Shown: piece after piece, positions 6,226 through 59,784 of the stretch
Numbering within the stretch: the first letter of the stretch is position 1
Layout: the number at the start of each line of letters is the position of its first letter
Assembly: GCA_025765615.1 (NCBI GenBank)
Contig: JAIVFJ010000047.1
Location: 248,001 to 312,000 of the forward strand
From: Zopfochytrium polystomum
Lineage: Eukaryota; Chytridiomycota; Chytridiomycetes; Chytridiales; Chytridiaceae
Reading direction: 5' to 3'
Length of the DNA: 64,000 nt
Translations under genes and position numbers: made by a program
The notes under the pieces: model-generated
Told to the model about the DNA's origin: nothing
What the model saw: only the letters and a program-made list of their open reading frames with translations
Database searches by the model: none

Positions 6226-7599
6226 GCAAGAGTGTGGGCCTTGTATGTGCATCTGTGCCTGCGTGTGAGTGAACAAGTTGACTCAGTAAGACTTCAGCTG
6301 CCAACCCAAAGCCAACGTGTCACGGCTGAGAAGGAACCCGTCACGGAAATGCTTCACTTGAAAAGACAACGTCAGGGCCGGGTACCACACAACTCGCGGG
6401 CCTACTTTTTGGATGCGCTTCGATCAATCAAGCGTGCGCCGCCAGCGTCTTGGTCGTTTGGCGCAATCTGGGGAATTTGGTGAAGATGACAGCCGTCCAT
6501 ACTGGCACTGCTGTTTGGTGACACGCAAGCAAAATACTCTGTCTAAAGGTAGAAAGGTAAGAAGGGGGGGACCTTGACAGTTCGGAAGGTATAGGCGCAC
6601 AGAGCCAATCTGTATTCCGCTCTACAAAAATGCCAACGACTCTCATGGTTCGATTGCGCCGGTTCGTAAGCCGAGCAGAAGGTGTTAGCACTATCTGGTG
6701 ACAAGTGCAAAATGAGCGTCAGCAGATCAGGGCCGGGAGGTTCGAGCGCGCGTTCTTTACGCCGCAGCGCGGTTACACAGGAGCTGACTGTTCTGTGAGC
6801 AGCAAAGAGCGACAGCTCGTGTTGTTGAGTTGTCGAGCTGAGTGGTGGTCGTGTACGGTAGGCGCGGCCGATTTAGCGCGATACGAGCAGTGTGTGGGAG
6901 AGCGTCTGCGTGGCATGTGGTGTGCGCGAGTTTTTTGCAGTACCTTGCCGCTGGGGAAAAAAAGAAAAAATTAAAAAAAAAAGTTTTCGCCGACAAAGGT
7001 TTGGGGGCAGCCTTGCTTCTTGCTCCTTCCCATCTGCCGCACTGCCCACGTTCACAGCGATCTGGATATATCAAGACCGGATCTCGCCTGTAGCGTGACG
7101 ATTACTGCCGACGACAATACCCGATCGTTCGATGGCGGTTTGACGGATCGTCACTGGCGTTATCACAGCAGCCGTCAGATAGGCCACCGTGACTCCACGG
7201 CCACGTGCCTCCGCTGTGCGCCGCCGATGCCTTCTGCCCCACACATCGCCAACAACTTTTTTTGCCGACACACAGCCATCAGTGCCGCTGCCACGGGTCA
7301 CTTACGTCGCATTTGCTGCAAAGGGAGTTCAATCACCCTTCTTAATCCGTCTGAATGCAGTTAAACTCAGACTCTGTCAACGCCTTGGCGACACTCCTGT
7401 ACCTTTCTGTGCTCCAATAACCAGTTGCAGAACTGAGTCCATATTAAATTTCAGCACTAACAGTCCTACTCACTCATCTTCTCCAAATCCCCTGCCCCTC
7501 CCTTCTCTCTCTCATTTTCCTTCGCCACTGGTCTAATACCCACTTGTTTTCCCAGGACATCAAAAGTTCTACTGAAAGCCATGGCAACTGCGCTGGACT

Positions 7600-10500
7600 G
7601 TGATATTCGAGTTTGGTGGAAAGAATAGGAGAATTTCTGTTCCTGCCACCACTGGCCTTGATGATTTGCTTCAGCTTGTTGCCACCCGTTGGAAAATTGC
7701 TGTTCCAATTGAGTTATTGTATGTGGACTCTGCGACTGGTGATCAGATGGTCCTTGATGTGGATGATGATCTGCCCAGCTTGCTTTCTCAGAATTTCAAG
7801 TGGAAAGTACGTCGCTTTTTTCTTGTCTGCGCTCCTCCTCAAATTTCTCACAAATTGCAAGGTTCTTGCTGCTGAAAACTCCTCAAGCTCCGCTTCAGAT
7901 GCTGCTGCTAAACCAGTTGTGAACACTGGTACAACAGCTTTTTCAAATGAAGAATCTGGCAGCAGCCACAGTCCTGTTGCTCCTGCTGTTGAGGAGGATA
8001 AGCATGATGAAACTCTTGAACGCAAGAAGGGTCAGTTAATGCTGTTCATCATTTCTCATGAGTGGCTCACTTGTTTTTAACTTGCATGGCTTCCCACAGA
8101 CAAGTGGATCGAGCTGATTCCAGACGATTGGGAATGCAAAACCTTTGTCCAGAAACATCCTTTCTTTATCAGGTCTGTCTGATACTCCTTTAGACATAGC
8201 AGTTGACTCTCTTTGCAGCTACCTGCCAGGCATCAGAGACTGGAGTTGCGATGAATTTGTTTCATGAGCTGAGGGTGGCTTTGTTCAACGACTATAGAGG
8301 CAGTGTCTTTCCTCAAGAGTCTAAACTGCTTGGTCTGCATCCATTTTGGGATGCCAAGTGCCTTGCCTTTGGGCAGAAGTGGGGGGTCAACTTCATGTCA
8401 GGACTGTTTCACTCTTCAGTGATTGTTTTGCTGTGTTCTGATGCGAGTATGGAGAGGATGCTAGAGGCAGACAGATATCCAGACAACTGCTTGCTAGAGG
8501 TATAAAACACTTTTTCCCTGATAACCACTCATCCTTGACACATTGTTCAGTGGGAGCTTGCGCTTCAGATGAAGAAAGAGAAAGGCCATGACATTTTGCC
8601 TATTTTTCTTTCAAGGCAAAGTGACTGCCACCCTTGATGATGGGAAGAAGGCCTTGTTGGTGAAAAACTTCAGCGCCTTTGATCACATGCAAATTCCCTG
8701 ACCTACCCCATGCTCACCCACTGAGCCCTGGCCTCCAAACTGTCTCTGAAACTGTGAAGATGATTATGGAGTTGAATGGGCCAAAGGCTCATCCCGAGAG
8801 TGATATTTTGAAGTGAGTGTAAAAACTTGTTGATTACTCTAATTGTTCACTTTTCACTGATTACGTTCTATTTCAGGATCGTGACAGAAGCCAGGGAAGT
8901 GTATAGCCGCCGCATGGCAGATTTGAAGACTGCAAGTCCAAGTTCAGATATTTCACTCTCCAGATCCAGCTTGGTTGAATTGGAAAAGTGGTTGACTCCA
9001 CTGTCTGCATTGATGGATCTTGAGAGGCAAGCCCTCCTAAAGAATGTGCTTTCTGGATCAAGGCAGTGGCTGCTCAAGAAAGTCTTTCAGTTTCTGTCAC
9101 CAGATGATCCTTCAGCAGCTAGCACTGACAGAGTGATTTGGTTGAAAGGTGTGGCTGGAGTGGGCAAGTCTGTGATGGCTGCCATGGTCTCCAGGGAGCT
9201 GCAGGCCCAGGGCATGCTTGGTGGCTTGTTCTTCTGCAAGCATGATGATGAGCGTCGCAGCAGTGCAAGGAACCTTGTCCTGACCCTGGTGTTTGGTCTT
9301 GCAAAGTTTAGTCTTCAGTTTGGAGAGACTCTGCTTCAAATCAAGCAAGACAATCCAGAGATTCTGTCCAGATCTGTGTTTGAGATGATGAAAGTGCTTC
9401 TTGTTCAGCCATTGGCAAAGGTTGTTGAGCTCTAAGAAGCTGTCTGTGCCTGTGGTGCTGGTTGTGGATGCCCTGGATGAGTGTGGTGCCATCAACAAGA
9501 GAAATGAGATTCTGTCAGTGTTTCAGGAGCTGAATAGGCTCCTTCCCAGCAACGTGAAGATCCTGGTGACTGGACGCCCTGAAGAGGATATTGCCAAGGC
9601 CTTTGAGAAGATTCCCAGTCGATTCAATTGAGCCAACTGCTGAAGAAAACACTCAGGACCAGATCGAATTTACAAGAGACTTCTTGAGGTCCTTGAATGC
9701 TGAATCATTCCTGGTTGATGAAGGATCCAAGACTCTTGTGTCAAAGTCGTCTGGCATTTTTGTCTGGCTTGTAGCTGCTTGCACATACCTGAGAAAATCA
9801 GAGAACGAAGAGATCACACTGGAGCAGATTGAGAACCTTCCAGAGGGCGACCAGATTGGATGGAAGCATTGACCGAATGTATGACAGAATATTCTCAGGG
9901 ATCCTTCAGCCTGCCAAGAAGGGCCATCTAGAGTCACTTCTCAATACTGTGCTGTCCCTGATTGTTCTTGCCTATGAACCTCTGACTGCTGCCACAATCG
10001 TCTCTGTGCTGGACATGGAGAACTCTGAAAATGTGAAGAGATGCATCCGCATGCTTGAGCCAATCCTTGTGCTTGATGGCGCCACCAAGAAGATCAGGAT
10101 TTTCCACAAGTCTGTCAAGGACTACCTGACTGAGCCCATCAAGGTGCACGCTGTCTGTTCAGATTGAAACAAAACTTGGCCATTCTGAATTTGCGAGCCT
10201 GTGCATGCATGTGATGAACAAGAACCTCATGTTCAACATGTGCAATCTGCCATTTTCAGATTTTCATTCAGAGATTCCAGATTTTGATGAAAGGGTGCAG
10301 AAAGGAATCCCACAACACGTTAGATATGCAGTCAAACACTTTTGGGAGCACTGTTTTGATTCAGCTGGCAAAATACCAATCTCCACCATGACACAGCCTT
10401 TGATTGAGCAAAAACTGTTGGCTCAAGTGGAAGAAGTTCTTGTTAAACAAGGACATCACTATCTGGAGGCCTGCAGCTTGCTAGGCTCTCTCGATCTGGT

Positions 10501-12655
10501 GATTCCAGCCATGAACAAGCTTCAAAACATTATTCCTGAGAATGGACAACAAACAATGCACACGCTGATGGACGACATGAAGAGGGTTATACGAAAGTTC
10601 CACATTCCTCTCAAGGCATCTGCATTGCAAGTTTATTTCACAGCCATTCCCTTTTCCCCGAGTGGCTCAGAAATTCACAAAACATTTAGTGGAAAGATCC
10701 CTGCAAACGTTTCATGCCCAAAAATAATGAAGGGTCAGCCAAAAGATTGGCCTTCTTGTATGAATGTTCTTGAAGGCCACAGTAATTGGGTTAACTCAGC
10801 AGCATTCAGTCCTGATGGGCAGTTTGTGGTCTCTGGAAGTAATGACAACACAGTCAGGATATGGAATGCAACCACTGGCGAGGAGCTTCACAAACTTGAG
10901 GGACACTCTTCTCATGTTAACTCTGCTGCCTACAGTCCAGATGGGGAGATTGTTGTGTCTGGAAGTGATGACAATACTGTAAGAATTTGGAATGCATCCA
11001 CTGGCCAGGAGATGTATAAGCTGGAGGGACATTCTAGTCATGTCTGCTCTGCATCTTTCAGCCCTGATGGACAGTTGGTTGTGTCTGGTAGTCATGATGA
11101 GACAATCAGAATTTGGAATGCTTTCACTGGCCAGGAGATACGCAGACTGGAGGGTCACACCAAAGGTGTTGAATCTGCAGCATTTAGTCCTGATGGGCAG
11201 TTTGTTGTGTCTGGTAGCAATGATACAACAGTCAGGATATGGAATACATCCACTGGCCAGGAGATGCGGAAGCTGGAAGGCCACTCGAGTGGTGTTACAG
11301 CTGTGGCTTTCAGCCCTGATGGGCTGTTTGTTTTGTCTGGGAGTACTGACAATAAAGTTCGCCTTTGGAATGCGACCAATGGCCAGGAAATGTGCCAGCT
11401 GCTGGGACACTTAGGTGCAATCAACTCTGCAGCATTCAGTCCTGATGGTCAGTTTGTTGTGTCTGCAAGTGGTGATGGATCAGTCATTCTGTGGGATAAA
11501 TCCACAGCCCAAGAGTTGTGCAAGCTGGAAGGACACACTTTTTATGTTCACTCTGCAGCATTCAGTCCTGATGGGAAGTATATTGTGTCTGGAAGTGGTG
11601 ACGGCACTGTAAGAATTTGGAATGCATCGACAAGCCAGAAACTGGCTGTTGAAGGAACACACTCTGCCCAGGTTACGTCTGCAGCAGTGAGTCCTGATGG
11701 ACAATTAGTTGTATCTGGTTGTAATGACAAGACTGTCCGGGTTTGGAGTGCAACCACTGGCCAGGAGCTGCATCAATATGACGGACATTTTGGTGGTGTT
11801 AATTTTGCAGTATTCTGCCCTGATGGGAGGTATGTTGCGTCTGGATGTCGTTCCTCCAAATTCTGGATTTGGGAGACATCTTCTGGCCAGTTGCAGCATG
11901 AGCTGGACGGACATGCTTACATGGTATTATCTGCAGCATTCAGCTCTGATGGGAAGCTTGTTGTGTCAGGAAGCTACGACGAAACAGTCAGAATTTGGAA
12001 TGCTTCCACTGGCAAGGAGCTGAAAGTGCTGAAGGGACACTCTAGTTGGGTCAACTCAGCAGCATTCAGTCCAGATGATCAGTTTGTTGTGTCTGGAAGT
12101 TATGACAATACAGTCAGAATCTGGAATGCAACCAATGGCCAGGAGCTGCACAAATTGGAGGGACACTCTCATTCTGTAAACAGCGCAGCATTTAGTCCGC
12201 ATTTGAACTTTGTTGTATCTGGAAGTGATGATGGGACAGTGAGGATTTGGAACACATACACTGGTCAGGAGCTGCACAAGCTGGATGGTTTCTCTTTCAC
12301 AATGTCCTCAGGATTCACTGCTGATGGGCAGTGTGTTGTTTTGAAAAGTGGGAATGGAGAAACAAAACTCATCCACCTTGCAACTGCACTGGAACAGCAT
12401 GAAAGTGCAGGTCCAGCTGCTTCCTACATGCCTAGACTGAAACACAATTTTGGTGCACGTAACTTGATTGGGCAGAAACTTCAGGATGGCCAAACTTTTC
12501 TTGACTCTGTTCTGGAGGATGGTGTTTGGTTTACCTCCAATGCCACAGAAGTTTGTTGCTGGCTTCCACCAGACTTCCGAGGAGAGCAGCAAGTCCTTTT
12601 GATGAATTCAATGCTCGTTCTGGGTAGTGGTATTGCTTTGCTCATTCAGTTTTGA
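7600..12655 (+). CDS. NLR-like STAND receptor: Ubl/PB1-like + TIR + NACHT + 13 WD40 repeats, with frame breaks
   Basis: Probable intracellular immune or self/non-self receptor. Exons: 7600(?)-7806, 7862-8030, 8100-8172, 8219-8499, 8551-8812, 8877-12655. The first encodes a small acidic fold (VLDVDDDLPSLL) resembling PB1/ubiquitin-like modules. A TIR domain follows: FFIS/YLPGIRDWS, HPFWDAK, GLFHSSVIVLLCSDAS, the acidic LEWELAL that aligns with the catalytic Glu helix, and ILPIF. NACHT motifs are GVAGVGKS (Walker A, about 9150), VVLVVDALDECG (Walker B, about 9455) and ILVTGRPEEDI. After a linker come 12 canonical and one degenerate WD40 repeats (about 10760-12350), each GH...SPDG...VSGS.D..VRIWN. 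One-base frame breaks occur near 8262, 8610, 8697, 9421, 9615, 9858 and 10150; the WD40 frame is open for 816 codons. The start is unclear: ATG at 7581 is in another frame. Domain calls are firm for NACHT and WD40 and good for TIR. Whether the gene is functional is open. Confidence 0.8.
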
Positions 12656-55219: not shown

Positions 55220-55443
55220 AAAAAAGGTGAGAGTTGTTGTGTAAACTGTTAGCTTGAGCCACTGAAACAGCATGAAACTGATGCGATCACATACATGTTT
55301 CCAGAGAGCGTCTTTCCATCATAGCTGTAGGATGTGACCTTGACTTCGTTTGCGGCGAGAACCTTTCCGGGAGGTAAAGCTACTGCAAGCGCGAGGGCAG
55401 CGGCCACCAACAACCGGAGGAACTTTGCAACGATGGACTTCAT
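53237..55443 (-). CDS. Secreted glucoamylase (GH15) with N-terminal CBM21 starch-binding domain
   Basis: Releases glucose from the non-reducing ends of starch or glycogen outside the cell. Five exons, 55443-55295, 55176-54999, 54915-54880, 54810-54519 and 54423-53237; 613 residues, in phase. The signal peptide is MKSIVAKFLRLLVAAALALA ending ...GKVLAAN. CBM21 follows (SYSYDGKTLSGNI, NIAYQKTVYVNYADLSQNW, NYEYWTFSCSIG, YDVAGTKYYDNN), then a short Thr-rich linker ([18 protein letters not shown]). The GH15 (alpha/alpha)6 barrel has NYFYHWIRDASLVMEG, GWCRPQNDGAAFRA, the general acid Glu in CDLWEEQRGLHFFTMMAQRR, NPWYLCTLAVAEVYYRA, the base Glu in HFNEQYSRTDG and DLTWSYAAVSSLNEAR. Both catalytic Glu are present. 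Layout matches the Rhizopus-type enzyme. Intron 1 ends in a T-rich tract (poly(A) as printed, 55184-55214). Confidence 0.96.
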
Positions 55444-55530
55444 GAGGATTGGGGTTGACAGAACTAGCAACGAGACTGGTGGTCGGGCGATCGTTTCTTC
55501 TTGGTTCCTTCTGTCTCGGAAATGAGGCAC
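55229..55530. repeat. Glucoamylase exon 1 region, original copy of a direct duplication
   Basis: This block (first-exon coding, start of intron 1 and about 90 bp of 5' flank) is nearly identical to 59481-59784 in the same orientation. Confidence 0.9.
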
Positions 55531-59480: not shown

Positions 59481-59784
59481 CGAGAGTTGTGGCGTAACTG
59501 TTAGCTTAAGCCATTGAAACAGCATGAAACTGAAGCGATCACAGACATGTTTCCAGAGAGCATCTTTCCATCATAGCTGTAGGATGTGACCTTGACTTCG
59601 TTTGCGGCGAGAACCTTTCCGGGAGTTAACGCTACTGCAAGCACGAGGGCAACTGCCACCAACGACCGGAGGAACTTTGCAGCGGTGGACTTCATGAGGA
59701 GTCGGGGTGGAGAGAACTAGCAACGAGACTGGTGGTCGGACGACCGTTTCTTCTTGGTTTCTTCTGTCTCGGGCAATGAGGCAC
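59481..59784 (-). pseudogene. Duplicated first exon of glucoamylase with its 5' flank
   Basis: Direct copy of 55229-55530, with fewer than about 30 differences by eye. It keeps an ATG at 59695, an intact signal peptide (MKSTAAKFLRSLVAVALVLA), the start of CBM21 (VKVTSYSYDGKMLSGNM) and part of the intron; the donor GTATGT has become GTCTGT. Read through, the frame stops after about 64 codons. No CBM21 remainder or GH15 exon follows. It could still be transcribed as a tiny secreted peptide, but the plain reading is a truncated duplicate. Confidence 0.8.

What the first reader, a model, noticed from the sequence alone, without database searches (positions are those of the whole stretch)
7600..12655. 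TIR-NACHT-WD40 NLR architecture in a fungus, with an acidic Ubl/PB1-like module in front
The gene joins an N-terminal small acidic domain, a TIR domain (FFIS-YLPG, HSSVIVLLCSDAS, catalytic-helix LEWELAL, ILPIF), a NACHT ATPase (GVAGVGKS, VLVVDALDECG) and 13 WD40 repeats. TIR-bearing NLRs are characteristic of plants, bacteria and animals; fungal NLRs mostly use HET, Goodbye, NAD1 or PNP effectors. If TIR is right, this would be a fungal NAD-consuming receptor analogous to plant TNLs or SARM1. TIR spans three exons, with an intron just before the predicted catalytic Trp-Glu, which may explain why automated annotation misses it.
Basis: partly seen in the sequence, partly recalled or inferred. 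Interest (0 to 1): 0.88.

Follow-up and report, generated by a model that had tools for sequence, protein, structure and literature searches.

The report
Chytrid PB1-TIR-NACHT-WD40 receptor gene family
A zoosporic fungus carries a large family of genes that join a TIR domain resembling that of the animal NAD-cleaving enzyme SARM1 to an NLR-type switch and a WD40 sensor, so it likely has an intracellular immune or self/non-self receptor set comparable to plant TIR receptors; the copy in this window is broken as assembled, and the enzyme activity is predicted, not tested.

Summary

The Trp of the usual WxxxE motif is Asn throughout. This copy has about eight frame breaks, two shared with its allele. 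TIR-NLRs in Chytridiomycota are already mentioned in print.

New here: the PB1 front module (nearest solved relative NBR1), the expansion, and WD40 repeats whose variable positions have the spacing of the four positively selected positions of Podospora het-d/het-e. Most likely these are recognition receptors that trigger an NADase by oligomerisation. Architecture is shown; activity and trigger are inferred.

The parts
7581..7806 (+). exon 1: PB1 domain (one frame break near its start in this copy)
   Evidence: Pfam PF00564 E 1.2e-4, 22.4 bits; 26.9 bits in intact paralog L056; profile of six paralogs matches NBR1 PB1 6tgs at E 4e-4
7862..8030 (+). exon 2: Ser/Ala-rich then acidic linker
   Evidence: read-out; same exon in paralogs
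8100..8172 (+). exon 3: TIR part A, DKWIELIP..HPFFI (first strand)
   Evidence: GT-AG intron 3 at 8173-8218
8219..8499 (+). exon 4: TIR part B (frame break at its start, shared with the allele)
   Evidence: 128 matches in the genome with this exon (plus one intron codon) as query
8497..8499 (+). codon of the Glu that aligns with SARM1 E642; last codon of exon 4
   Evidence: profile alignment to SARM1; Glu in 29 of 30 loci, with GT donor and AG|TGGGAR acceptor in 29 of 30; these are the 30 best of 128 matches
8551..8812 (+). exon 5: TIR part C, WELAL..ILPIFL.. to TIR-NACHT linker (two frame breaks, one shared with the allele)
8877..10130 (+). exon 6, first half: NACHT/NPHP3_N ATPase and winged-helix part (P-loop GVAGVGKS, Walker B VLVVDALDECG), four frame breaks in this copy
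   Evidence: NPHP3_N 60 and 32.8 bits; frame jumps near 9430, 9610, 9860 and 10135
10131..12655 (+). exon 6, second half: open WD40 part with stop codon
   Evidence: 841-codon open frame; PF00400 12 stretches
10790..12285 (+). WD40 tandem array, 42-residue units; in the family, hypervariable at unit positions 4, 5, 7, 23, 25, 39
   Evidence: period 126, 11.9 copies, 67% matches; entropy and pN/pS

Best explanation
The window holds one copy, with its reading frame broken as assembled, of a large chytrid gene family that joins PB1, TIR, NACHT and WD40 domains and is predicted to act as intracellular recognition receptors whose TIR domain would cleave NAD when the receptor oligomerises. Proposed order of events: the hypervariable face of the WD40 propeller binds a non-self or modified-self protein (inferred); the NACHT switch exchanges nucleotide and oligomerises (inferred from the family); the PB1 domain, which has both a basic and an acidic stretch, helps stack the receptors head to tail (inferred); the clustered TIR domains then hydrolyse NAD through the conserved Glu and stop growth or kill the compartment (inferred). 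Because Asn replaces the Trp of WxxxE, the product would more likely be plain ADP-ribose than a cyclic ADP-ribose signal (inferred). This particular copy is probably an allele in decay, a poorly assembled one, or both; many paralogs are intact.
Against: No transcript or biochemical data. The Trp of WxxxE, reported as strongly conserved in cADPR-producing TIRs and weaker in non-catalytic or non-cADPR ones (PMC11374754 passages), is Asn in 30 of 30 loci and 9 of 9 related proteins, so the TIR could be a scaffold only. PDB sequence matches to SARM1 are weak. The folded protein is a relative (P0053), not the window's own TIR, and its alignment had 8 rows. pN/pS near 1 is compatible with relaxed constraint; dS is close to saturation; no likelihood test of positive selection was run, and the WD40 units passed a motif filter. 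This copy is frame-broken.
Confidence: 0.62

Rival explanations
1. The TIR is not an enzyme but a homotypic adaptor or scaffold, as in MyD88 or MAL, and recruits another effector after NACHT activation.
Confidence: 0.25
2. The window copy is a pseudogene; the frame breaks are real and the family matters only through its intact members. (Compatible with the best explanation.)
For: Two breaks are shared with the allelic copy on C200. Several other TIR matches in the genome contain stops or are partial.
Against: In the NACHT half the two alleles differ by 4 indel bases but only 2 substitutions, an indel excess typical of long-read base errors; the C200 copy reads through those four places but is broken at another. 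The WD40 part is open.
Confidence: 0.55
3. The front part belongs to separate genes: a PB1-TIR gene next to a NACHT-WD40 gene, as the public gene models suggest.
For: 5 of 5 Zopfochytrium proteins begin at or inside the NACHT exon. 18 of 126 TIR loci have no NACHT match downstream.
Against: 93 ordered triads with narrow spacing (median 684 bases TIR to NACHT) and matching splice sites. Public proteins P0006, P0010-P0015, P0017 and P0053 hold this TIR and NACHT in one chain. Splicing L056 gives one 1604-residue frame.
Confidence: 0.06
4. The variable WD40 positions reflect drift in a repeat array with no recognition role; the receptors have another signalling function.
For: pN/pS is about 1, not clearly above 1, at these positions.
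Against: Strong variation is confined to six of 42 positions, and four of the five most variable match the spacing of the selected het-d/het-e codons; over the other positions pN/pS is 0.40.
Confidence: 0.12

Closest known systems
Podospora anserina HNWD NLRs (HET-NACHT-WD40; het-d, het-e, het-r)
   Same: N-terminal TIR-related effector, NACHT, internally repetitive WD40 array with 42-residue units, variable positions with the same spacing, gene family
   Different: TIR_2 instead of HET domain, PB1 in front, repeats only 62% alike on average in the window, no known allorecognition in this chytrid
SARM1 / TIR-1 NADase
   Same: nearest solved TIR by sequence profile and by structure; Glu aligned with E642
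   Different: no ARM or SAM match here; Trp of WxxxE is Asn; joined to NACHT-WD40
Plant TIR-NB-LRR (TNL) receptors such as RPP1, ROQ1
   Same: N-terminal TIR, STAND ATPase, C-terminal repeat sensor; RPP1 and ROQ1 TIRs among the structure matches
   Different: NACHT/NPHP3_N rather than NB-ARC, WD40 rather than LRR, PB1 in front
Other chytrid TIR-NLRs (mentioned for Chytridiomycota in PMC9815663; P0011 Cladochytrium, P0015 Obelidium and others here)
   Same: same TIR family before NACHT-WD40
   Different: different or no recognisable front module; Podochytrium P0018 and Rhizophlyctis P0020 use a more canonical TIR
NBR1/p62-type PB1 domains
   Same: A3 profile matches NBR1-homolog PB1 6tgs/6tgn at E 4e-4 and 1e-3
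   Different: placed in front of TIR in a receptor instead of an autophagy adaptor

Membership tests
TIR domain (Pfam TIR_2) | significant match to the curated family model | tested here: met
   11 of 11 rows match at E up to 1, row 1 at 32.7 bits against cut-off 28; P0053 33 bits; the window exon alone had none
TIR domain (Pfam TIR_2) | flavodoxin-like TIR fold | tested here: met
NADase TIR | catalytic Glu in helix C | tested here: met
   aligned to what I count as SARM1 E642; Glu in 29 of 30 loci and 9 of 9 relatives
NADase TIR | Trp of the WxxxE motif | tested here: not met
   Asn in 30 of 30 loci and 9 of 9 relatives
NADase TIR | NAD hydrolysis | not testable with these tools
   needs protein and assay
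NACHT/STAND NLR | NACHT/NPHP3_N ATPase with P-loop and Walker B | tested here: met
   NPHP3_N 60 bits against cut-off 24.8; GVAGVGKS and VLVVDALDECG in the read-out; PF05729 itself below cut-off in the window pieces (16.8 and 19.8 against 26.7)
Podospora HNWD family | N-terminal HET domain | tested here: not met
   no HET model among the Pfam matches; TIR_2 instead
Podospora HNWD family | WD40 units with variable codon pairs that flank a conserved residue | tested here: met
   positions 5/7 and 23/25 around V6 and D24 against codons 7/9 and 25/27; positive selection itself not tested by likelihood
Plant TNL | NB-ARC and leucine-rich repeats | tested here: not met
   NB-ARC 14.5 bits, cut-off 23.5; WD40 repeats instead
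SARM1 | ARM and SAM domains before the TIR | tested here: not met
   PB1 before, NACHT and WD40 after the TIR; no ARM or SAM model among the matches shown
PB1 domain | significant match to PF00564 | tested here: met
   L056 26.9 bits, cut-off 23.6; the window exon itself is just below at 22.4

The most novel reading that the evidence does not exclude
Chytrid fungi independently evolved a TNL-like immune repertoire: dozens of PB1-TIR-NACHT-WD40 receptors whose PB1 domains polymerise like NBR1, switching on a SARM1-like NADase without the WxxxE Trp, and whose WD40 faces diversify at the same propeller positions as the allorecognition receptors of filamentous ascomycetes.
Probability: 0.4. Interest if true: 0.85.

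Novelty: new variant of a known kind. Interest (0 to 1): 0.62.

Why it matters
Reviews describe fungal TIR-NLRs as a small group beside the many HET, patatin, HeLo and other types (PMC10197012 passages), and an early survey found no NLRs in chytrids (PMC4986451 passages). If these genes work as proposed, a phylum that branched early among fungi uses TIR-NLRs by the dozen, which makes the TIR/HET relationship and the origin of fungal NLR immunity testable. The alleles and many paralogs give natural variants, and the Asn in place of the WxxxE Trp gives a sharp prediction about the reaction product. The same variable WD40 positions in a chytrid and in an ascomycete suggest one recurring design for a repeat-based recognition surface.

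Tried and rejected
Considered and rejected: that the TIR call was wishful; that TIR and NACHT lie in separate genes (spacing, single frame, public fused proteins); HET in place of TIR (no HET model among Pfam matches); that the window copy is intact.

Led nowhere: Pfam on the single window TIR exon (no match) and on the 157-residue paralog piece of L060 (no match); protein search with the Cladochytrium TIR region found only itself among 125 candidates; protein search with PB1-TIR of a full-length paralog found one protein, P0053, with only the 7,991 best candidates scored (one search likewise scored 7,992); the Nowakowskiella P0010 front part matched no Pfam family; PB1 in P0053 and Rhizophlyctis P0020 stays below cut-off (19.3 and 14.9 bits); PADLOC matched only 1 or 2 of 11 members per model, mostly TIR-bearing models. 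That PB1-TIR-NACHT is not in print rests on searches of the held library only. The one paper that holds 'PB1 domain', 'NACHT' and 'TIR domain' concerns a plant resistance gene (listing only). Of the three papers with 'TIR domain' and 'Chytridiomycota', two were then seen in passages that do not describe TIR-NLRs of chytrids (PMC4102429, PMC10853773). The book chapter and other works that PMC9815663 cites for Chytridiomycota were not looked up, except PMC7075850 (passages).

Counts and rows dropped: one search found 154 NACHT matches and listed 150; one search used those 150 plus 130 PB1 and 128 TIR matches, typed. TIR exons were spliced in the 30 best of the 128 places; L009, L010 and L017 were dropped from the dN/dS set for frame reasons and L019 for a stop, leaving 26 loci; of 325 pairs, 312 had pS above 0.05 and 286 a finite dS. 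The 30 loci fall into 22 clusters at 97% identity, so genome-wide counts include both haplotypes and recent copies. WD40 units passed a motif filter, so divergent units are missing; the two frames with one unit each (of 84) were left out of the 82 units. One search used segment borders a few bases off the final exon borders.
Full report
What was checked. The window is part of contig C47 of an 80 Mb assembly. Three public Zopfochytrium polystomum proteins (P0002, P0003, P0004) lie on contigs whose lengths equal those of C60, C344 and C19, so the genome is that chytrid (Chytridiomycota, Chytridiales). The finding's 'fungus' is right.

Gene model. Intact paralogs on other contigs give six exons, which map to the window at 7581-7806, 7862-8030, 8100-8172, 8219-8499, 8551-8812 and 8877-12655. 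Splicing the paralog L056 gives one frame of 1604 residues: PB1, linker, TIR, NACHT, winged-helix part, WD40 array.

The copy in the window. It is not open. Judged by the canonical splice sites, the reading frame breaks in exon 1, at the start of exon 4, twice in exon 5 and four times in the NACHT half of exon 6. Contig C200 is colinear with window 1-24929 in five pieces of 94-99% identity and so is most simply the other haplotype. Its copy reads through exon 1, through the four NACHT breaks and through one of the exon 5 breaks; it shares the exon 4 break and the other exon 5 break, and has one break of its own in the NACHT half. The shared exon 4 break could be bypassed by another GT-AG pair that keeps the frame but drops residues of the first TIR block (L010). 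In the NACHT half the two copies differ by 4 indel bases and 2 substitutions, in the WD40 half by 1 and 11, in the upstream flank by 18 and 23, in the downstream flank by 2 and 8. The first pattern looks like base-call errors, the shared breaks like real decay. I cannot separate these.

PB1. PF00564 scores 26.9 bits in L056 (cut-off 23.6) and 22.4 in the window. Two of the three PDB matches of the profile at E up to 1 are NBR1-homolog PB1 domains, 6tgs and 6tgn (E 4e-4 and 1e-3). In L056 the exon carries a basic stretch (GKNRK) and an acidic stretch (DSATGDEMVLDVDDD), which fits a PB1 that can polymerise; that NBR1 PB1 domains polymerise is recalled, not looked up.

Family. Placing the TIR, NACHT and PB1 matches on the contigs gives 126 TIR loci, 108 with NACHT 250-1800 bases downstream, 102 with PB1 250-1500 upstream, 93 with both, 9 with neither. 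On the opposite strand the counts are 0 and 0, and NACHT lies upstream in 1. The assembly holds both haplotypes, and the 30 loci fetched fall into 22 clusters at 97%, so gene numbers are lower, probably some dozens (inference). The TIR exons of 26 loci have a median dN/dS of 0.16 over 286 usable pairs of 325, so the domain is kept by selection.

WD40 sensor. In 84 units from 11 frames, aligned on the Trp at position 30, entropy is highest at positions 5, 23, 7, 4, 25 and 39. Within genes (82 units, 348 pairs) pN/pS is 1.01 at these six and 0.40 over the other 36. In Podospora het-d/het-e, codons 7, 9, 25 and 27 are under positive selection, each pair flanking a conserved codon, and lie on the top face of the propeller (PMC1805685 passages; PMC2873952 passages). 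The pairs 5/7 and 23/25 here have exactly that spacing and flank V6 and D24. The offset of two is my reading; the papers' own unit consensus was not seen. Positions 4 and 39 are variable here without such a counterpart among those four.

Distribution. A search with the NACHT part returned 52 proteins. My TIR profile finds the window-type TIR in 8 of those 52: one each from Cladochytrium replicatum, Entophlyctis, Obelidium and Siphonaria and four from Nowakowskiella sp. JEL0407. Podochytrium P0018 and Rhizophlyctis P0020 carry a more canonical TIR_2 (69.4 and 68.3 bits). The five Zopfochytrium proteins in that list have no TIR part, consistent with mis-annotation.

Prior art. [quoted passage not shown] of the works cited I saw only PMC7075850 (passages), which says that TIRs occur in fungi. 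PMC4986451 (passages) found no NLRs in chytrids. PMC10197012 and PMC12881547 (passages) describe a small group of fungal TIR-NLRs and the HET-TIR relation. PMC12258605 has no mention of TIR. My searches of the held library found no paper on a fungal PB1-TIR-NACHT receptor.

Verdict. A real chytrid TIR-NLR family, a new variant of the fungal NLR kind, seen here through a damaged copy. Shown: domains, order, exon structure, expansion, TIR fold of a relative, conserved Glu, WD40 variability. Inferred: oligomerisation, NAD hydrolysis, ligand recognition, cell death.

Noticed in passing
window 1-24929 against contig C200 (L063, L051, L064): The assembly holds both haplotypes: C200 is colinear with the window at 94-99% identity, so all family counts are inflated.
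   Followed up: partly
G000, 85 places (loci L039-L050): A second set of TIR_2 matches (best E 2e-22), of which 1 of 85 overlaps the window's TIR family; 16 lie upstream of a NACHT match, that one included.
   Followed up: partly
P0053 (DFJ73DRAFT_851612, Zopfochytrium): PB1-like stretch, TIR and NACHT joined to a Cys-rich stretch with below-cut-off C1 and ZZ matches; no WD40 match.
   Followed up: no
P0010, P0012, P0013, P0014 (Nowakowskiella sp. JEL0407): By eye, several ubiquitin-like or PB1-like modules precede the TIR; the P0010 stretch matched no Pfam family.
   Followed up: partly
G000 places C144:78441, C257:56025, C63:260165, C182:42340, C9:617697, C79:62485: Six PB1 matches are followed by the family NACHT with no TIR match between them, so the TIR may be lost or too diverged there.
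   Followed up: no
window 55229-55530 and 59482-59784: A 300-base direct repeat at 92% identity.
   Followed up: no
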